From Candidatus Kuenenia stuttgartensis (lineage in GTDB: Bacteria; Planctomycetota; Planctomycetia; Pirellulales; UBA1268), in the NCBI GenBank assembly GCA_945897435.1, contig CAMDFJ010000011.1, positions 1 to 38,522 of the forward strand: a DNA stretch of 38,522 nucleotides. Direction: 5' to 3'. Positions 3,407 to 28,991 of this stretch are shown here, piece after piece. Every line of letters starts with the position of its first letter. Position 1 is the first letter of the stretch. Both the position numbers and the translations under genes were made by a program. Below the pieces are notes generated by a model. It made no database searches. It worked only from the letters and a program-made list of their open reading frames with translations, and was not told the DNA's origin.

Positions 3407-3615
3407 TCCCGGACATCAGCCGGCTTCATGCCGGTGCCTTTGCCATCGCGTGCCGACCCGCAGGGGCCGGGACTTGCCAATCTATCCTCCGCCCAGACCC
3501 TTCCGCCGACAACTCCCGGCCAGCCGCCGAGAGGTTGCTACACTTCACCCAGCCTGCGGCCGCTGGCCTGTCGACCCCCGACCACCCTTCAACCACCGAA
3601 CACCCACTCCCGAAA

Positions 3616-4608
3616 ATGGCAGATACTCCCCGGCGTTCGCTCTCGCCGAACGACTCGCTTCCGCCGGTCGAACCGCCGAGCGCCGCATTCCTGGTGCAAC
3701 TGTTTCTCGTTCCGGGTTTGATCGTCGCGATCATCGTCTGCGTCTGGCTGGCGTTCCACTGGCTGGCCCATCTGGGCAACGACCCGCAGGCCTACGTCCG
3801 CACCCTGCGTCGCGACAACGAGGGCCGCTGGCAGGCCGCCCTGAACCTGGCCAACGATCTGCGAGGCCCTGCCGGAGGACCGCTGAAGTCGGATGCACCA
3901 TTGGCGGTGGAACTAGGCCGGATCCTCTCCGACGAGGCAAAGAGCGGGCGCACCGGCGAACAGTCGCAGACGCTGAGGGTCTATCTCTGCAGGGCGTTGG
4001 GCGAGTTTTCGATTCCAGACGCTGCCGGGCCGCTCGTCGAACAGGCCGGCAACCTGAACGATCCGCAGACGGCCCGGGCCGCCGTCGAAGCCCTCTCCGT
4101 GCTGCAGGCCAATCTTGCAGCCGCAGGCCGGTCGGCCGGCGATCCGGCTGGCATCACGGCCGCGGTGATCGGGGCTTCGAAGAGCGACGACCTGCAGCTG
4201 CGGTCGGCCGCGGCCTTCACGCTGGGAGTCGTCGGCGGCGCTGGCGCAGTCGAAAGGCTCACCGAACTGGCTGCCGACCCGGCCGACGATGTCCGCTACA
4301 ACGCCGCGCTCGGCCTCGCCCGACAGGGACGCGCCGAGGCGGTCGACGGGCTCTGCGAGATGCTTGCGCTCGAGGATCTGCCTCCGGCCGCGGCGGCCGA
4401 TGTTGCCGCCCAGTCGCAGCGGTACAAGCGGGCGCTGGTCGTGGTCAACGCGTTGAGGGGCGTCGCCCTGCTCGTCGATGCAACCCACGAACCGCCCCCG
4501 AAGTCCCTGCTCGAAAGGGTGCAGGCCACTGCCGATGACCCCGTCACCGACGTCCGGTCGAGCGCCGCTGCACTGCTCAAGAAGATCGAGCGACTCTCGG
4601 CCCCCTGA
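3616..4608 (+). CDS. Membrane-anchored HEAT-repeat-like protein
   Basis: The protein has 330 residues from the ATG at 3616; the frame is open far upstream but that part reads as non-coding. A proline-rich N-terminus (residues 1-24) precedes one strong membrane segment at about 25-52 (FLVQLFLVPGLIVAIIVCVW). After it come several alpha-helical pairs of HEAT or PBS-lyase type, for example RSAAAFTLGVVGGAGAVERLTELAADPADDVRYNAALGLA and DVRSSAAALLKKIERL near the C-terminus. Such repeats usually form protein-binding solenoids; the orientation suggests a short cytoplasmic head, one membrane pass and a long soluble solenoid, but the side of the membrane cannot be decided. No catalytic motif is visible. 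The gene converges on the AroE-like gene with only 23 bases between. Confidence 0.7.
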   Translation: MADTPRRSLSPNDSLPPVEPPSAAFLVQLFLVPGLIVAIIVCVWLAFHWLAHLGNDPQAYVRTLRRDNEGRWQAALNLANDLRGPAGGPLKSDAPLAVELGRILSDEAKSGRTGEQSQTLRVYLCRALGEFSIPDAAGPLVEQAGNLNDPQTARAAVEALSVLQANLAAAGRSAGDPAGITAAVIGASKSDDLQLRSAAAFTLGVVGGAGAVERLTELAADPADDVRYNAALGLARQGRAEAVDGLCEMLALEDLPPAAAADVAAQSQRYKRALVVVNALRGVALLVDATHEPPPKSLLERVQATADDPVTDVRSSAAALLKKIERLSAP

Positions 4609-4631: not shown

Positions 4632-5465
4632 TCACGACAGGTATTCGTCGAGCGCCTCGCGGAGCATGTCGGTGTCGACCTCCACGCCCGTGAGGGTCTG
4701 AAAGTCGATCGCTGTCTTGGCGGAGTGGATGTCGAGCCCGTCGATCGTGCAGGCACCTTGTCGGACCGCTGCCGCGATCATCGGCGAGGGCTGAGGCACG
4801 AGGGCGAAGTCGGCCACGACGAGATCGTTGCGGATCCCCAGGCACTCGACGGCCGGCTTCGGGCCTTCGGTGGGAATTGCCGAGACGACGATGCCAACCC
4901 GTTCGGGGATTTCGATTGCCGACTGCCAGGGGATCGCAACGGCCTCGCTGGTATCGAGTCTGGCGATCGCTTCGACGAGAGCCGCGGCCCGATCGACATC
5001 CCTGTCGCAGACGACGATCTCGGTGACGCCGGCGAGGGCAAATTCGAGTGCCGTGGCCCGGCCGGCCGCGCCGGCGCCGAGGATCAGCACCCGCGCTCCG
5101 GCGGGATCGACGTGCGATCGCACGGCCTCCAGAGCCCCGCGGCCGTCTGTCATGTGGGCGAAGAGCCCTGAAGGCTGGCGTTCGATCAGGCTGGCAGCCA
5201 GGGAAAACGAGGCCGCAGGTGAGGCTGCATCGACGAGCGGCAGGGCCGCCGCCCGTAGCGGTCCCCAGAGCACGCAGCCCCGAAAGCCCATCGCCCGCAC
5301 TCCCGCGATGGCATCGGCCAGTCGGACAGGCTCGACCTCAAGCGTCAGAAAACGCCAGTCGAGCCCCGCTGCCTCGAGCCCGCGCTCATGCAGATACTGG
5401 GCCGGATTGCCGGCCGCCGGAGCCCCCAGAAGGGCGATGATCTCCTGCAGGGCAGGGCTCGTCAT
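4632..5465 (-). CDS. AroE-like (shikimate dehydrogenase family) protein with altered active site
   Basis: The 277-residue, full-length product has the two-domain AroE layout. The Rossmann half is clear: VLILGAGAAGRATALEFALAG (126-146) and VVSAIPTEG. The substrate half follows the family pattern, with GFRG at 60-63, proline 69, aspartate 79 and TDGRG at 106-110. Key positions differ: the catalytic lysine (in the canonical NVTxPxK stretch) is arginine 71, the canonical asparagine and threonine before it are valine and tryptophan, the AVNT motif reads SLAA, and the late glutamine motif reads GLDIHSAK. The NADP-selecting NRT segment is CDRD, which would favour NAD. It may act on a different polyol acid, or be regulatory. 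It probably shares an operon with the TPR gene 28 bases upstream. Confidence 0.7.
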   Translation of the reverse strand: MTSPALQEIIALLGAPAAGNPAQYLHERGLEAAGLDWRFLTLEVEPVRLADAIAGVRAMGFRGCVLWGPLRAAALPLVDAASPAASFSLAASLIERQPSGLFAHMTDGRGALEAVRSHVDPAGARVLILGAGAAGRATALEFALAGVTEIVVCDRDVDRAAALVEAIARLDTSEAVAIPWQSAIEIPERVGIVVSAIPTEGPKPAVECLGIRNDLVVADFALVPQPSPMIAAAVRQGACTIDGLDIHSAKTAIDFQTLTGVEVDTDMLREALDEYLS

Positions 5466-5493: not shown

Positions 5494-6057
5494 TCAGACC
5501 GTCACGGTCGTCACGGCGACGAACCGCGGATCGGCGCGGATCGGGTCGAAGTCGGGTTCGACCTCGGTCAGATCGCGGAACCGGCCATCCATCGAGATCG
5601 CGCGGGTGAGGTGCTCGACGGCAGCCTGCACGTCGCCATCGAGTGACAGATAGCAGGCCAGATTGTAGTGGAAGATCGGCTGCTCAGGTGCGGCGGCCAG
5701 CCCCTTGCGGAGAATCTCGATCGCCTCGTCGAGCCGGTCGAGCCGCTTGAGGCACCATCCAAGACCGAGCCAGGCCTCCAGTCGCTCTGGCTCCATTTCG
5801 GTCACGGCCGAGAGCGGAACCGTCGCCTCCTGCCAGCGGCCGAGGGCCCGCAGGGCTTCGCCTTCAAGCACCCTGGCATCAGCCTGAGACCGAGTCGGCT
5901 CGGGGAGTTCGTCGAGGGTTCGAAGAACCCGTTCGAGAAGCCGCACGGCCGAATCGGGCAGGGGTCGCCCTGCTTCGACGAGGAGTTCGGCAAGTTCGAT
6001 CGAACCAGCGGCCTGCCGCAGGATGGCCTGACGGCGAACCCTCGACATGGCGGTCAT
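5494..6057 (-). CDS. Tetratricopeptide repeat protein
   Basis: The 187-residue protein begins at the ATG at 6057, preceded by GGAGG six bases upstream; the next ATG at 6048 is too far from that site. Residues from about 60 to 150 form at least three TPR units: ARVLEGEALRALGRWQEATVPLSAV, EAWLGLGWCLKRLDRLDEAIEILRKG and PIFHYNLACYLSLDGDVQAAVEHLTRA. The C-terminus ends in EVEPDFDPIRADPRFVAV, a short tail often following TPRs. There is no signal peptide, so it is probably cytoplasmic and protein-binding. It lies directly upstream of the AroE-like gene in the same direction, so they are probably co-transcribed, but nothing in the sequence says what it binds. Confidence 0.8.
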   Translation of the reverse strand: MTAMSRVRRQAILRQAAGSIELAELLVEAGRPLPDSAVRLLERVLRTLDELPEPTRSQADARVLEGEALRALGRWQEATVPLSAVTEMEPERLEAWLGLGWCLKRLDRLDEAIEILRKGLAAAPEQPIFHYNLACYLSLDGDVQAAVEHLTRAISMDGRFRDLTEVEPDFDPIRADPRFVAVTTVTV

Positions 6058-6311
6058 CGCGAACCTCCGCGGTGCAAGCCCCCGAAACGACAGCCGCGGA
6101 TCCCCGCCGCGGTCCGCTGCCGAATGGGTACCAATGTTTTATACGCAGCAGCCCGTGACTTGGTTCCGGATGCCGAAAAAATCGGATTTCCCAGGGTTTT
6201 GGAGGTTTTTAGCATTTCCGCCACGAATTTCCGGACAAACCGCCACTCCTTTCATTGGAGCCGTCGAAGACCTCTTCCACCCCAACCATGTCCCCCCCGG
6301 GAGACTTCCCG

Positions 6312-8603
6312 ATGCGTCTGACCGTCCGAACCCTGCTCGCCTGGCTCGACAACGTCCTGCCGGCCGACGAACAGCACGAACTCGGCGACAAGGTGGCCGC
6401 CAGCGCCGCAGCCCAGCAGCTCGTAGAACGAATTCGGAGGGTGGTCGAGAGGCCGACCGTGCCGGCGCCACGGGTTGATGGAAAGGGACTGGCCAGGGAC
6501 GCAAACTCGGTCGCCTGCTTTCTCGACAACACGCTCGAGCACGACCGGCTCGAGGAATTCGAGCGGGTGCTGATCGAGTCGGACATGCACCTGGCAGAAG
6601 TGGCCGCCTGCCACCAGCTGATCGCGACGTTTGCCGAGGATCCGCTCTCCACCATGCCGCTCGACGAAGAACGTCGTGCCCGGCTGCTGGCAGCGATGCA
6701 GCATCGCCTGGCAGTCCGGTTTGCGGCCGTTGAACGCGAGGAGCAGGTTGCCAATGCCCAGGCGGTCGGTGCCGCGCTGCAGTCGACCGCCGCTGCCGGC
6801 GGGAACGACGCCAGAGGGTTTGGGGATCAGATCGACACGGTGCTCATCGATCGCCGGGTTCCAGGTGCGGCCTCCGCAGGCAGCCAACGGCGATCCTCGA
6901 TGGCGTCCTGGGCCTCGGCGTTGGCGGCGCTCATGCTGCTCCTGCTGCTCGGGGGATTGCTCTACCGTTCGCTCGCCGGTCGGCGGGATGCGACCGCGGC
7001 AGCAAAGGCCGCTGTGGCGAATCCTGCCGAGGTGGCGGCTGCCGCCGCGACTGTGCCGCCCGAGGTGGTCAGTGAGCCGCCGACCGAGCCGCCGACCGAA
7101 CAGCCTGCGGCAGCGGTATCACCAGAGCCGGCGACAGCGGCGACTCCGGAGCCGACTCCAGAGCCAGTGGAAATTGCGGTCGACGAAGGCATGGTCGCCG
7201 AGTCCCCGCCGACCGCTGCTCCTGCTCCTGCTCCTGCTCCTTCGACCGACATGCCGCGGGTGCCGCAGGGCGATGCCCTGGCGATCGCGGCCCCTCTTCT
7301 GCCCGCTCCGCCATCACCACCGGCCGCGGGAGTTCCGAGTGGTCAAACGCCGCAGCCCACAACGCCATTCGATCCGCCGTCGTCACCGGAACCAACTCCC
7401 GCCCCAGCCATTGGATTCGTGGCCAACGGCGGCATGCTGCTGCACAGGGTCGTGCTGCCGGCCGTCGCCGGAGCGGCAGCGCGAGCGGTCTGGGTGCCAT
7501 TCGCCCCTGAGGCGGCCCTGGAACCGCGGGAGGAGGTACTCGTTCCGGCGGGTGCCTATCCAGAGGTCAGCCTGGGGGGCGTGACGATCCGTCCGCTTCC
7601 GGCGACCCGGGCGACGTTGACCGTCGATCCGGATGGCACGCCGCGGATTGAGATCGCCTTCGGCCGGGTCGTTGCCCGTGCGAGTCGGGGCGATGCCCGT
7701 CTGGGCGTGATCGCCGGCGGGCTGTCAGGCACGATCATGGCGGGGCTGCTCGCGCCGGTCGCGATCGGGGTCGAACTCGATCGACCGCCAGGCAGCGACC
7801 CGACGCTCGATCCGGCACGGGTTCGGGCGGGGATCACGACCGCCGCCGGTGGCATCGTCTGGAAGCAATCGGCTGTCGACGGGGAGATGCTCGCGGGGAT
7901 CGGTCCCGAGGGCATGCTCGATGCCCGACAGTCGATCCTCTGGGACGGGGCGAAGCCGCGGGTTGCCGCTGTCGTTCGCCTGCCGGCGCCACCGAGTTGG
8001 CTCGAGTCGTTCCCCCAGAGTGATCGCGTCGAGCGCGGGGCCGGCGAGGCGCTCGCGGCACGGATCGCCTCCGGCACGCCCTTCGATCGGGCACTTCGCG
8101 AGATGTCGTCTGACCGCCGTGCCGAGAACCGGATGCTCGCCGCCAGCACGCTGGGGATGCTCGGAGAATACGACGAGCTCGTGGAACTGCTGGGGAGCGA
8201 GGGGGCGGGGCGGAAGCTCGAAAATCGCCAGTGGCTCTCGCTCGAGGGGGCGACCGTGCCGCTGGCCCTGGCACGGGGGGAGATGTCGGCCGGCCGGCTC
8301 CACGAGACCTTCGATCGCATCGGCCCTCCAGGCCGAGGAGAGCTCCTGTTCCGGATGGCCTGCGGCTTCAGCGACGAACAGCTCGCCGCCGGTGCCGATG
8401 CCGAGCTCGTCGCGGCGCTCGAGGACAGCTCGCTTGTCGTGCGGCGGTATGCCTTCAAGTGCCTCTGCGAGATCGTCGGGCCCTCGGCGGCCGACAAGGC
8501 GAAATACCGTCCGGACGGTCTGCCGGAACTCCGTCAGGAGGGGGTCAGCTGGTGGCGCAGCCAGCAGGAAAAAGCCGCCATCCGCTGGCTGGAACGGCGA
8601 TGA
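6312..8603 (+). CDS. Large single-pass membrane protein with duplicated anti-sigma-like N-terminus
   Basis: The protein has 763 residues from the ATG at 6312, with GGGAGA about seven bases upstream. Two similar helical units open it: LLAWLDNVLPADEQHELGDK (8-27) and ACFLDNTLEHDRLEEFERVL (68-87), each followed by a helix ending in a hydrophobic pair. This layout is reminiscent of zinc-free anti-sigma domains. One membrane helix lies at about 200-218 (SALAALMLLLLLGGLLY), then a long proline/alanine/glutamate spacer to about 380 including an AP run. The rest is soluble: a strand-rich middle (VSLGGVTIRPLPATRATLTVD) and a C-terminal helical-repeat region (from about 600). I do not recognise a catalytic site. 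The topology predicts a cytoplasmic sensor-like head and a long periplasmic part. An envelope-sensing role is inference only. Confidence 0.7.
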   Translation: MRLTVRTLLAWLDNVLPADEQHELGDKVAASAAAQQLVERIRRVVERPTVPAPRVDGKGLARDANSVACFLDNTLEHDRLEEFERVLIESDMHLAEVAACHQLIATFAEDPLSTMPLDEERRARLLAAMQHRLAVRFAAVEREEQVANAQAVGAALQSTAAAGGNDARGFGDQIDTVLIDRRVPGAASAGSQRRSSMASWASALAALMLLLLLGGLLYRSLAGRRDATAAAKAAVANPAEVAAAAATVPPEVVSEPPTEPPTEQPAAAVSPEPATAATPEPTPEPVEIAVDEGMVAESPPTAAPAPAPAPSTDMPRVPQGDALAIAAPLLPAPPSPPAAGVPSGQTPQPTTPFDPPSSPEPTPAPAIGFVANGGMLLHRVVLPAVAGAAARAVWVPFAPEAALEPREEVLVPAGAYPEVSLGGVTIRPLPATRATLTVDPDGTPRIEIAFGRVVARASRGDARLGVIAGGLSGTIMAGLLAPVAIGVELDRPPGSDPTLDPARVRAGITTAAGGIVWKQSAVDGEMLAGIGPEGMLDARQSILWDGAKPRVAAVVRLPAPPSWLESFPQSDRVERGAGEALAARIASGTPFDRALREMSSDRRAENRMLAASTLGMLGEYDELVELLGSEGAGRKLENRQWLSLEGATVPLALARGEMSAGRLHETFDRIGPPGRGELLFRMACGFSDEQLAAGADAELVAALEDSSLVVRRYAFKCLCEIVGPSAADKAKYRPDGLPELRQEGVSWWRSQQEKAAIRWLERR

Positions 8604-23320: not shown

Positions 23321-25120
23321 ATGGCAGGGCAACCGAGGGCTCCATTCTGGCTGGCCGTCTGGGCGGTGATCCTCGGACTCGTCGGCCTTTCGGCCTGGCG
23401 GGCCGGCATGCTCGAGCAGTTCGGGTTTGGCCGGCCCGGCGGTCTCGGGCCGCGGCCCGTGGCGGGTGGAGGGCAGGCGCCTGGAACTGGCGGTGTCGGC
23501 GGCGGGCAGGCTGCAGGCGGTTCCCCGGCCCCGGGTGGCGGCGGTCTCGAAGGCATGACCGAGGCCCCGGACGTGTCCGTGCCGACGACCGTGAAGGAAT
23601 ACACCTTCAAACCGGCCGAGAAACTCCCTCCGGTGAAGGGCGTCAGTGCCTACAAGCCGCTCCAGGACGACACCGTGCGGTTCGCGCTCAACGTCTGGGC
23701 GGGCTGGAGTCCGATCATTCATGCCAACAACGGGTTCAAGGCGGGCAAGGTCTGGCAGGCACCAGGCGGTAAGCCCTTCAAGATCGACCTCGTACTTATC
23801 GACGATCCCGTCCAGATGCGGGATGCCTACGCCGCCGGAGAGGTTCATGTCGGCTGGGCGACCCTCGACATGATTCCGCTGTTCATCGACAGTTTCTCGA
23901 AGGATTCGCGGATCATGCCCCGGGTCTACCAGCAGGTCGATTTCTCGAACGGAGGTGACGGGATCGTCGTCCGGGATTCGATCAAGACGGTCAAGGACCT
24001 CGCCGGCAAGACGCTGGTCCTTGCTCAGAACTCGCCAAGCCAGTTCTTTGCCCTGAACATGCTCGTCGCCGGTGGCCTGCAGCCGGCCGACGTCCAGATG
24101 CGTTACGTCAACACGGCCTTCGAGGCGGCCGCGGCATTCGACCAGGACAAGAGCATCGCTGGCTGCGTGTCCTGGGCTCCCGACATCTACAACCTCGCCA
24201 AGGCGAAGGGCAACCGGATGCTGGTCACGACCCAGACAGCAAACCGACTGATTGCAGACGTCTGGTTTGCGCGGGCCGACTTCGCCAAAGACCATCCCGA
24301 CAAGATCGAGGCGATTGTCCGCGGCATCTTCGACGGCATGCAGGAACTGAAGAGCGAGTCGGCCCGGGCGAAGGTCGCAACGCTGATGGCGGATGGCTAC
24401 AACATCCCTGCCGCCGACGCTCTCGGGATGCTCGGCGACGCCCACAGCACCAACTGGGCCGAGAACTACCAGTTCTTCGTCAACCGCAACAATCCTGCGA
24501 ACTTCGAACGGATCTGGAAGCAATCCTCCTATCTCTACCGCCGGATCGGTGCCCTCTCCAATGCGGCGGTGCCCTTCGATCAGGTGATGGATTTCTCGGT
24601 GATCCAGAAGCTCGGAGCCGAGCCGAAGTATGCCGAGACGAAGGATGAATACCTGACAACTCTGGCACCCAAGAGCGTCCAGCAGATTCGGGCCGAGAAC
24701 GAGGAAATCCTCACCAACACGATCGTCGTCCACTTCTTTCCAAACAGCTCCGATCTGCGGAAGAAGGTGATTCGGCGGATCGATGGCCGCGAGGTCGAGG
24801 AGCCGTACGATCCGACGATCGACCTCGTCCTCGATGAGGCCGGACTGCTCGCCAAGCAGTTTGGCAACGCCCGGATCGTGGTCGAGGGGCATACCGACGC
24901 ATCGATGAAGGGGGCCGTGCCGGCGGCGATGGTCAGGGAACTGTCGCTGGAGCGGGCCAAGGCCGTGAAGGATGCGCTCGTCGGGAAGTTCAAGTTTGAC
25001 GACAACCGATTTGCCGTGGACGGGCTCGGCTGGGATCGTCCGGCCGACCATGACAACCCCGACAACCACGCGCTCAACCGTCGCGTGGAGATCAAGGTTT
25101 ATTCAGCGGAGAAGGAATGA
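23321..25120 (+). CDS. Membrane-anchored substrate-binding protein fused to an OmpA peptidoglycan-binding domain
   Basis: The 599-residue protein begins at the ATG at 23321 behind AAGGGGT. One membrane helix lies at about 8-28 (PFWLAVWAVILGLVGLS), without a convincing cleavage site, so it is probably an anchor. A glycine-rich linker runs to about 80. Residues 110-430 form an NMT1/TauA/SsuA-type binding domain: FALNVWAGWSPIIHANN, AGEVHVGWATLD, DGIVVRDSIKTVKDLAGKTL. Residues 475-597 are an OmpA-like domain with VEGHTDAS near 523 and NRRVEIKVYS near the end, the residues that bind peptidoglycan diaminopimelate. This would tether the binding protein between inner membrane and cell wall. The stop overlaps the permease start (ATGA), so the genes form a translational unit. 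The ligand is unknown. Confidence 0.85.
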   Translation: MAGQPRAPFWLAVWAVILGLVGLSAWRAGMLEQFGFGRPGGLGPRPVAGGGQAPGTGGVGGGQAAGGSPAPGGGGLEGMTEAPDVSVPTTVKEYTFKPAEKLPPVKGVSAYKPLQDDTVRFALNVWAGWSPIIHANNGFKAGKVWQAPGGKPFKIDLVLIDDPVQMRDAYAAGEVHVGWATLDMIPLFIDSFSKDSRIMPRVYQQVDFSNGGDGIVVRDSIKTVKDLAGKTLVLAQNSPSQFFALNMLVAGGLQPADVQMRYVNTAFEAAAAFDQDKSIAGCVSWAPDIYNLAKAKGNRMLVTTQTANRLIADVWFARADFAKDHPDKIEAIVRGIFDGMQELKSESARAKVATLMADGYNIPAADALGMLGDAHSTNWAENYQFFVNRNNPANFERIWKQSSYLYRRIGALSNAAVPFDQVMDFSVIQKLGAEPKYAETKDEYLTTLAPKSVQQIRAENEEILTNTIVVHFFPNSSDLRKKVIRRIDGREVEEPYDPTIDLVLDEAGLLAKQFGNARIVVEGHTDASMKGAVPAAMVRELSLERAKAVKDALVGKFKFDDNRFAVDGLGWDRPADHDNPDNHALNRRVEIKVYSAEKE

Positions 25121-27836: not shown

Positions 27837-28991
27837 TCAATCCAACCAGTCGGCGTCTGCCAGTCGCTCGGGCGTGTAGGTCTCGGTGACGTAGCTGATG
27901 TCCTTCGAGATCAGCGACTCGACCTCCAGCTTGAAGCCGTTCTTGAGCATCGTCTCGATCTCCTTCTGCCAGCCCTTCTTGCCCGCAAACCAGGGGTAGG
28001 CGGCGATCTGCTTGGCCCGTTTGATGTCGGTGTCATTGAGCGCGATCTGGACGCTCTGCGAGAGTTTGCAGCGGTCGTAATCGCGGGAGCGGATGCCGAG
28101 GAAACGGGCCTCTGGGATCGCCATCCGTTTTGATTCGTAGGCGAGGTTGATCGAGCCCTGCTTGAGCACTGAATAGATGTAGTAGCCCCAGGGATCGTTG
28201 TCGAGAAGGCAGTAGACGGGGAGTTTGAGTTCGTGGTGGAGTCGGTAAAGCATCCGGCGGACACCCCGGGGCGGTTGGCCACCGCCGTGGGTCAGCAGGC
28301 AGTTGTGCTTCCTCCAGAACTTGTCCTCGTTGAACCGCCTCCAGACGGTGTCCTTCTCGACGTGGAGGATGAACTTCGCGTCGCACTGTTTGAACCGGAC
28401 GATGTCGGCCTCGACGATCGATGGGATCGAGTATCCACCCGATCCCATCCGAGAACAGTCGATCTCGTCGCCGGAGTCGATGAGCGTGATCGGCCCGACC
28501 ATGCCGCCGCGATTGCTGGCATAGACGTGCAGTTCCTCCCGCAGGCTCTGCAGCGACACCTCCAGATCCTCGATGATCGGGTCGCACTCTTCCTGGGTGG
28601 CGAAGGTTTCCTCGCGGGTGCCCTCGATCGTGTGCTTGAGCAGGTAGTAGAGACCTCGGATGCTGGTGGTCTTCTGCTGGTCGATCAGGGCCTTGCAGCC
28701 GGTCGCCACGAGCAGCGTCTGCATGTAGCTTTTGGCCTGCGAGAGGTTGAAGAGTTGGCGGCAGTTGGTCTGCGGACCCATCTCGATGATCTTCCGCGAC
28801 TTGTTGAAGCGGACGTTCGAAAGGCTGCGGGTGGGAATGTCGAGGTGAGGATCGCGGCGCTTTTCGGCAGCCGCCGCCACCCGGTTGGCAAGATCGACGA
28901 TCAGGCCGAGGGTCTTGGCGTCGACCGGGGGAAGTTTTGCCTTGGCGGTTGCTGGTGCCGCAGGCTTCTTCGCTCGCTTCGTGGTGGCCAT
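27837..28991 (-). CDS. DNA topoisomerase VI subunit A-like protein (Spo11/Top6A family)
   Basis: The 384-residue protein carries the Top6A landmarks. The 5Y-CAP region reads TTSIRGLYYLLKH (108-120), where the second of the paired tyrosines (Y116) aligns with the DNA-cleaving tyrosine. The Toprim region has the glutamate in HVEKDTVWRR (E212) and LLDNDPWGYYIYSVLKQGS (D264, D266), almost identical to the archaeal TDGDPWGYYIYS stretch. A basic alanine/lysine N-terminus (1-20) precedes. Topoisomerase VI is typical of archaea and plants and needs a GHKL subunit B; none is encoded beside it in this window. It could pair with a distant B subunit or work alone as a Spo11-like nuclease. It sits alone between convergent and hairpin-rich flanks. 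Confidence 0.85.
   Translation of the reverse strand: MATTKRAKKPAAPATAKAKLPPVDAKTLGLIVDLANRVAAAAEKRRDPHLDIPTRSLSNVRFNKSRKIIEMGPQTNCRQLFNLSQAKSYMQTLLVATGCKALIDQQKTTSIRGLYYLLKHTIEGTREETFATQEECDPIIEDLEVSLQSLREELHVYASNRGGMVGPITLIDSGDEIDCSRMGSGGYSIPSIVEADIVRFKQCDAKFILHVEKDTVWRRFNEDKFWRKHNCLLTHGGGQPPRGVRRMLYRLHHELKLPVYCLLDNDPWGYYIYSVLKQGSINLAYESKRMAIPEARFLGIRSRDYDRCKLSQSVQIALNDTDIKRAKQIAAYPWFAGKKGWQKEIETMLKNGFKLEVESLISKDISYVTETYTPERLADADWLD

What the first reader, a model, noticed from the sequence alone, without database searches (positions are those of the whole stretch)
4632..5465. AroE-family protein with the catalytic lysine and substrate asparagines replaced
The fold and catalytic aspartate (D107) remain, but lysine is arginine 71, AVNT is SLAA and the cofactor loop reads CDRD. 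A shift to another substrate or NAD use is likely. If this is the only AroE-like gene, the aromatic pathway step must be carried out unconventionally.
Basis: partly seen in the sequence, partly recalled or inferred. Interest (0 to 1): 0.5.

Follow-up and report, generated by a model that had tools for sequence, protein, structure and literature searches.

The report
Planctomycete AroE-like protein lacking catalytic lysine
This gene makes a relative of a common enzyme for aromatic compounds that has lost key catalytic and substrate-holding residues, while a second intact gene in the same bacterium can do the normal job, so it has probably been put to another use.

Summary
The gene is real, on the minus strand at 4632-5465 (277 aa), with the shikimate dehydrogenase fold. 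K65 (E. coli AroE numbering) is Arg71; the stretch aligned to AVNT is AASL, not SLAA; D107 and CDRD are as reported. Also changed: S14/S16 to N20/A22, N59 to V65, T61 to W67, Y215 to L222, Q244 to K250. It is not the only AroE: the 96%-complete assembly holds one other, an AroD-AroE fusion with intact pocket residues, so the pathway step looks ordinary. The window gene belongs to a clade found in 32 of 36 sampled genomes of its family. It keeps its place between a TPR gene and a HEAT-repeat gene and is under purifying selection. None of the 32 has Lys at that site, 11 have also lost the Asp and 7 the Rossmann GxG. The substrate-side domain stays as conserved as in intact relatives. One 97%-complete relative lacks just this gene between preserved neighbours. 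Most likely it is a repurposed, largely non-catalytic AroE-fold protein. A new redox substrate is not excluded for the window's own protein. Similar losses occur in other Pirellulales families.

The parts
4632..5465 (-). AroE-like paralogue, 277 aa (called AROL here)
   Evidence: Pfam and NCBIfam matches; AlphaFold2 model pLDDT 94.7; closest structure 7cok_B Z 36.2 over 273 residues
5400..5408 (-). N20-P21-A22, at the positions of E. coli AroE S14-x-S16 (shikimate carboxylate serines)
   Evidence: role of the serines from PMC2789096
5271..5273 (-). V65 at the position of N59; 0 of 32 orthologues have Asn
5253..5255 (-). R71 at the position of catalytic K65; 0 of 32 orthologues have Lys (R 22, Q 7, C 1, E 1, T 1)
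5187..5198 (-). A90-A91-S92-L93 aligned to AVNT; N86 becomes S92
5145..5147 (-). D107 at the position of catalytic D102; kept in 21 of 32 orthologues
5058..5078 (-). Rossmann glycine motif GAGAAGR (130-136)
   Evidence: GxG kept in 25 of 32 orthologues
4998..5009 (-). C153-D154-R155-D156, adenosine-ribose loop
4716..4718 (-). K250 at the position of Q244; K or R in 22 of 32 orthologues
5494..6057 (-). TPR-repeat protein, 187 aa, same strand, 28 bases upstream; beside AROL in 32 of 32 f1 loci, so a likely operon partner
3604..4608 (+). HEAT-repeat protein, convergent neighbour on the other side; found in 30 of 32 f1 loci (the other two loci reach a contig edge there)

Best explanation
It is a second, repurposed member of the shikimate dehydrogenase (AroE) family. 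Its nearest relatives in other families of the order have Lys and Asp but lack the two shikimate-binding serines; the closest solved relative is 5-ketofructose reductase. I infer that in the window's family it moved next to a TPR gene and lost the catalytic lysine and most substrate-binding side chains, while keeping the two-domain fold and a strongly conserved substrate-side domain. It is not the pathway's shikimate dehydrogenase; the AroD-AroE fusion is the obvious candidate for that. I infer that its conserved role is binding (a metabolite, or a partner such as the TPR protein) rather than dehydrogenation, with NAD(P) binding surviving only in part of the clade. Shown by computation: homology, fold, paralogue count, residue losses, purifying selection, synteny, absence in one relative's assembly. 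Inferred: descent and relocation, lack of activity, binding role, link to the TPR protein.
For: There are two AroE-like genes in the assembly, and the other is intact and fused to DHquinase I. In 32 orthologues: Lys65 0 of 32, Asn59 0 of 32, Asn86 5 of 32, Asp102 21 of 32, Tyr215 0 of 32, Gln244 5 of 32. The 32 form one clade (100/100, stem 1.31 changes per column). dN/dS is 0.09-0.23 in 14 f1 pairs. The N-terminal substrate-side domain is as conserved in f1 as in 52 relatives with both K and D (0.631 vs 0.608), while the Rossmann core is less so (0.521 vs 0.661; permutation p 0.005). Branches that lost GxG still show dN/dS 0.09-0.15 (three pairs among L030-L032 and L036-L037). G025 (97% complete) has the lipoate ligase-HEAT-TPR-782 aa-HPF locus without AROL, and no AROL-level match elsewhere. 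A Lys-to-Ala mutant of M. tuberculosis AroE loses 68-fold in kcat; Lys, Asn, Thr and two Ser hydrogen-bond shikimate in T. thermophilus AroE (PMC2789096).
Against: In the window's own protein D107, GxGxxR and R155 are all present (R71+D107+GxG+R155 in 15 of 32), which a pure binding protein need not keep. D107 and GxG tend to be kept or lost together (20 both, 6 neither, 6 mixed; Fisher p 0.003), though too few independent events exist for a tree-aware test. A lysine mutant keeps about 1.5% of kcat (0.73 of 50 per s), so loss of lysine alone is not proof of inactivity. The model of the most eroded member, L037, was less sure (pLDDT 84, first 40 residues poor). No ligand, partner or expression was seen. 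G025 shows that the TPR gene persists without AROL, which weakens an obligate pairing.
Confidence: 0.57

Rival explanations
1. It is an active oxidoreductase with a changed substrate. R71 or K250 with D107 does the acid-base work, NAD(P) is the cofactor, and D154 may favour NAD. Some family members later lost activity.
For: D107 plus GxG are kept in 20 of 32, and R71+D107+GxG+R155 in 15 of 32 including the window's protein. K or R at the Q244 pocket position in 22 of 32. The nearest solved structure acts on a sugar, not shikimate. D107 and GxG go together.
Against: Position 71 is Gln in 7 of 32, among them L014, L019, L021 and L023 that keep D107 and GxG. Polar ligands are replaced by aliphatic or small residues (N59 to L/V/I/M in 32 of 32, S16 to A in 31 of 32, Y215 to L/V/P in 32 of 32). 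The Rossmann core is the relaxed part.
Confidence: 0.3
2. It is a dead paralogue that pairs with and tunes an active AroE-fold enzyme (the AroD-AroE fusion), as catalytically dead paralogues do in trypanosomes.
For: Dead paralogues that activate their partners are known (starts of the abstracts of PMC5201418 and PMC3663545, seen in the listing). A fused AroDE is encoded in the same genome.
Against: G025 has an AroDE-level match but no AROL. AROL is closer to the AroE-like proteins of other families (35-43% identity in most rows) than to its own AroDE (26%), so a hetero-dimer is not expected from ancestry. Dimer surfaces were not tested.
Confidence: 0.08
3. It is a gene drifting to loss, with no function.
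For: Absent from a 97%-complete relative with neighbours kept. Long clade stem.
Against: No stops inside the match in 32 of 32, dN/dS 0.09-0.23 in 14 f1 pairs, 26 invariant columns among 32 sequences.
Confidence: 0.03
4. It is an ordinary shikimate dehydrogenase with tolerated substitutions.
For: Family match over the whole length; fold.
Against: All five side chains that hydrogen-bond shikimate in T. thermophilus AroE are changed. Best NCBIfam equivalog score is 139 against a cut-off of 252. An intact AroDE is present.
Confidence: 0.02

Closest known systems
5-ketofructose reductase of Gluconobacter (PDB 7cok/7col)
   Same: Closest solved sequence (E 4e-31) and fold (Z 36.2, 273 residues, 29% identity); shares an NP turn where AroE has SxS. 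A 5-ketofructose reductase annotated as a putative shikimate dehydrogenase was NADPH-specific and reduced only 5-ketofructose of the compounds tested (PMC7954740, passages).
   Different: It has K at the catalytic position and NTDG at the Asp loop; the window protein has R71 and MTDG (alignment)
AroE shikimate dehydrogenase (E. coli, T. thermophilus)
   Same: Two-domain fold, Asp102 equivalent, GxGxx motif
   Different: Lys65, Asn59, Asn86, Ser14, Ser16, Thr61, Tyr215 and Gln244 all changed
YdiB and Corynebacterium quinate/shikimate dehydrogenases
   Same: Fold (1vi2 Z 34.5, 3jyo Z 30.9); an acidic residue near the adenosine ribose, as in NAD users (for these two enzymes recalled, not tested here)
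   Different: E. coli YdiB keeps K, N, D and Q at the K65, N86, D102 and Q244 positions
Fungal QutR/qa-1S/GaaX repressors
   Same: AroE-like domain thought to have lost enzyme activity and to work by binding an inducer (PMC6528562 and PMC10512348, passages)
   Different: They are three-domain AROM-like proteins next to a zinc-cluster activator; this is a single AroE-like protein next to a TPR gene

Membership tests
Shikimate dehydrogenase family (fold and ancestry) | Shikimate_dh_N and Shikimate_DH domains over cut-off | tested here: met
   29.3 vs 27 and 31.8 vs 24.3 bits
Shikimate dehydrogenase family (fold and ancestry) | Two-domain AroE fold over the whole length | tested here: met
   pLDDT 94.7; Z 27-36 in the 50 rows listed
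AroE, functional shikimate dehydrogenase | Catalytic lysine (E. coli K65) | tested here: not met
   R71; 0 of 32 orthologues have Lys
AroE, functional shikimate dehydrogenase | Catalytic aspartate (E. coli D102) | tested here: met
   D107; 21 of 32 orthologues
AroE, functional shikimate dehydrogenase | Shikimate-binding Ser14, Ser16, Thr61, Asn86 | tested here: not met
   N20, A22, W67, S92
AroE, functional shikimate dehydrogenase | NCBIfam equivalog cut-off | tested here: not met
   Best 139 bits vs 252; every shikimate dehydrogenase model listed is under its cut-off
AroE, functional shikimate dehydrogenase | NADP-dependent shikimate oxidation | not testable with these tools
   needs an assay
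5-ketofructose reductase | Lys and Asp at the catalytic positions | tested here: not met
   Lys replaced by R71, D107 kept (alignment with 7cok)
5-ketofructose reductase | 5-ketofructose reduction with NADPH | not testable with these tools
   needs an assay
Pseudoenzyme (working concept) | Catalytic residues lost across orthologues under purifying selection | tested here: met
   Lys 0 of 32, Asp 21 of 32, dN/dS 0.09-0.23 in 14 pairs
Pseudoenzyme (working concept) | No catalytic activity | not testable with these tools
   needs an assay
QutR/GaaX-type AROM-derived repressor | Shikimate kinase-like, dehydroquinase-like and SDH-like domains in one protein | tested here: not met
   277 aa with the two AroE domains end to end; no kinase or dehydroquinase match listed

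The most novel reading that the evidence does not exclude
AroE-fold proteins were freed from catalysis in Pirellulales more than once and kept as binding or regulatory proteins. In the window's family the lysine went first while Asp often remains. Among 88 other rows sampled, Asp is never seen without Lys. The conserved surface has shifted to the former substrate domain, where a new ligand or a TPR partner is recognised. This would be a single-domain bacterial counterpart of the fungal QutR principle.
Probability: 0.35. Interest if true: 0.6.

Novelty: new variant of a known kind. Interest (0 to 1): 0.36.

Why it matters
Name transfer by family would call this protein a shikimate dehydrogenase, which it very probably is not. 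A family-wide, syntenic, selected AroE paralogue without its catalytic lysine, with intact relatives in sister families and an absence in one genome, is a good natural experiment on how a metabolic enzyme fold is turned to a possibly non-redox role. [quoted passage not shown]

Tried and rejected
Only AroE in the genome: rejected (the other copy). Lysine elsewhere as a substitute: K250 is the only pocket candidate and is not conserved. Tree-aware test that D107 and GxG are lost together: too few independent events to decide. A model of the most eroded member (L037) came out at pLDDT 84 with its first 40 residues poor on a 30-row alignment, so I draw nothing from it about fold integrity. TPR pairing as an ancient partnership: the TPR gene occurs without an AROL match within the fetched stretch in five loci of other families (L142-L146) and in G025. 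Neighbour clustering is muddied by shadow ORFs at high G+C. Literature: nine searches showed no title on a planctomycete AroE paralogue or on a bacterial AroE pseudoenzyme among the rows listed; several searches matched more papers than were listed. The Pfam scan of the 782-aa neighbour found no family.

In 'intact' means K and D present, 52 rows; of the 55 K-and-D rows counted, three AroE-like f15 rows (L088-L090) were left out there. The alignments A1 (59 rows) and A3 (30 rows) held only part of the sequences in hand.

Full report
What is there. The ORF at 4632-5465 is on the minus strand and encodes 277 aa. Pfam finds both shikimate dehydrogenase domains over cut-off. NCBIfam AroE equivalogs match end to end but far below their cut-offs (best 139 vs 252 bits). 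The AlphaFold2 model from 59 relatives has mean pLDDT 94.7. Foldseek and VIA-align put 5-ketofructose reductase first (7cok_B, Z 36.2, 273 residues, 29% identity), followed by quinate/shikimate dehydrogenases and AroE. The sequence search agrees (7cok, E 4.2e-31).

The residues. Aligned with E. coli AroE, K65 is R71, D102 is D107, N59 is V65, T61 is W67, N86 is S92, T87 is L93, S14 is N20, S16 is A22, Y215 is L222, Q244 is K250, and N149-R150-T151 is D154-R155-D156. In T. thermophilus AroE the side chains listed as hydrogen-bonding shikimate are Ser14, Ser16, Thr60, Lys64 and Asn85 (PMC2789096, parts 1 and 2 of 3 read). All five are changed in the window protein, and all five are kept in the AroE half of the genome's other copy. 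The same paper shows that Lys-to-Ala costs 68-fold in kcat with little effect on binding, so lysine loss alone lowers rather than abolishes activity.

The other AroE. The 96%-complete genome has two matches to Shikimate_dh_N. The second is a 500-aa protein with DHquinase I, Shikimate_dh_N, Shikimate_DH and SDH_C domains, and it holds the one DHquinase I match of the genome. Chorismate synthase is present as well; the other pathway genes were not searched. So the aromatic pathway needs no unusual enzyme at this step.

A conserved clade. Of 36 genomes sampled from the window's family (G000-G035), 32 have an orthologue. The four without are G004 (77% complete), G025 (97%), G027 (74%) and G033 (80%). 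In a profile search of 397 genomes of the class, the family's orthologues score 377-472 bits and the next row 280 (listed rows). The TPR gene is beside AROL in 32 of 32 loci, and the HEAT-repeat gene in 30 of 32, the other two loci reaching a contig edge there. The 32 form one clade with 100/100 support on a stem of 1.31 changes per column. Lysine is absent in 32 of 32 (R 22, Q 7, C 1, E 1, T 1), Asn59 in 32 of 32 and Tyr215 in 32 of 32. Asn86 remains in 5 of 32 and Asp102 in 21 of 32, and GxG of the Rossmann domain in 25 of 32. The 14 f1 pairs tested give dN/dS of 0.09-0.23. Six pairs from outside the clade give 0.04-0.17: four pairs with both catalytic residues 0.04-0.13, and two without 0.125 and 0.17. 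So the clade's ratios lie at or somewhat above those of intact relatives. Several pairs have dS near or above 1, so the ratios are rough.

Where selection acts. Compared with 52 relatives that have both K and D, the clade is as conserved in the N-terminal substrate-side domain (mean pairwise identity 0.631 vs 0.608) but less so in the Rossmann core (0.521 vs 0.661). The contrast between the two regions is 0.16 (column bootstrap 95% interval 0.05-0.28; permutation p 0.005). Columns and sequences are not independent, so the p value is a guide. Without L029, L030-L032, L036 and L037 the direction stays (0.665 vs 0.608; 0.593 vs 0.661). Eleven columns are dominated by different residues in the two groups at 85% or more, among them A22 for T, L70 for H, L93 for C, H104 for E and R109 for K. 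This is the pattern of a changed function centred on the old substrate domain rather than of simple decay.

Origin and loss. In one genome each of families f13 and f19 (L146, L145) the TPR gene lies with matches to the 782-aa protein and HPF but no AROL, HEAT or lipoate ligase match in the 12 kb read; in f20 (L144) TPR and the 782-aa match were seen, in f16 and f8 (L142, L143) TPR alone. In the non-f1 AROL loci tested, none of the window's neighbour proteins matched near AROL (L038-L069), and the neighbour clusters of f1 held f1 loci only. I infer that AROL moved beside TPR in the ancestor of f1. In G025 the lipoate ligase, HEAT, TPR, 782-aa and HPF matches are all in order, but no AROL match remains; the HEAT match ends at 3696 and the TPR ORF ends at 3724. 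The gene can therefore be lost in nature, if that assembly is right.

Not unique to this family. Of 88 other AroE-like rows examined, 55 have K and D, 7 have K only, 0 have D only and 26 have neither. In f1 the picture is the reverse: 21 have D only, 11 have neither. The different order of loss suggests separate events, but the tree joins many of the eroded lineages on long branches with a warning about such joins, so the number of events is open. The 88 are not a random sample.

How it most likely works. The best reading is a repurposed AroE-fold protein whose conserved job is binding rather than dehydrogenation. The redox rival stays alive for the window's own protein, because R71, D107, GxG and R155 are all present in it and in 15 of 32 in all, and because D107 and GxG tend to be kept or lost together (20 both, 6 neither, 6 mixed). 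The NAD suggestion rests on D154 at the N149 position; an acid at the end of that strand is a mark of NAD users in this family (recalled), and PMC7144000 (section 11) says the cofactor pocket of YdiB is more neutral than the basic one of AroE. But R155 is kept. I rate this undecided.

Precedents. Fungal QutR, qa-1S and GaaX repressors carry an SDH-like domain thought to be enzymatically dead, and are thought to bind an inducer (passages of PMC6528562 and PMC10512348). They are three-domain proteins, so this is a resemblance in principle, not membership.

Noticed in passing
L124:4813-5556; also L055-L057, L073, L074, L076, L081-L087, L119-L122 and others: In many non-f1 loci, mostly of family f7, the AroE-like gene (often without K and D) is followed on the same strand by an ORF of one similarity cluster (23 loci; positions). 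The L124 member matches Pfam AAA_26 with 109.9 bits, which I recall as the dethiobiotin synthetase BioD family. Cluster membership was not checked protein by protein.
   Followed up: partly
window 27837-28991 (-): Topoisomerase VI subunit A/Spo11-like protein in a bacterium, with no B subunit beside it; a Topo VI B match lies on contig C8 of the same genome.
   Followed up: partly
window 23321-25120 (+): NMT1-like substrate-binding protein fused to a C-terminal OmpA domain, next to ORFs that read like an ABC transporter permease and ATPase (for the domains; the neighbours by eye).
   Followed up: no
L059-L062, L065-L067; rows of G006, G009, G010, G012, G013, G017, G021, G028, G029, G035: Ten of 36 f1 genomes have a further AroE-like match of 112-129 bits. 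The seven fetched read NPTV at the SxS site and have K and D, as 5-ketofructose reductase does.
   Followed up: partly
window 6255-8603 (+): 782-aa proline-rich protein divergent from the TPR gene, no Pfam match; matches to it lie beside the TPR gene in three other Pirellulales families (L144-L146).
   Followed up: no
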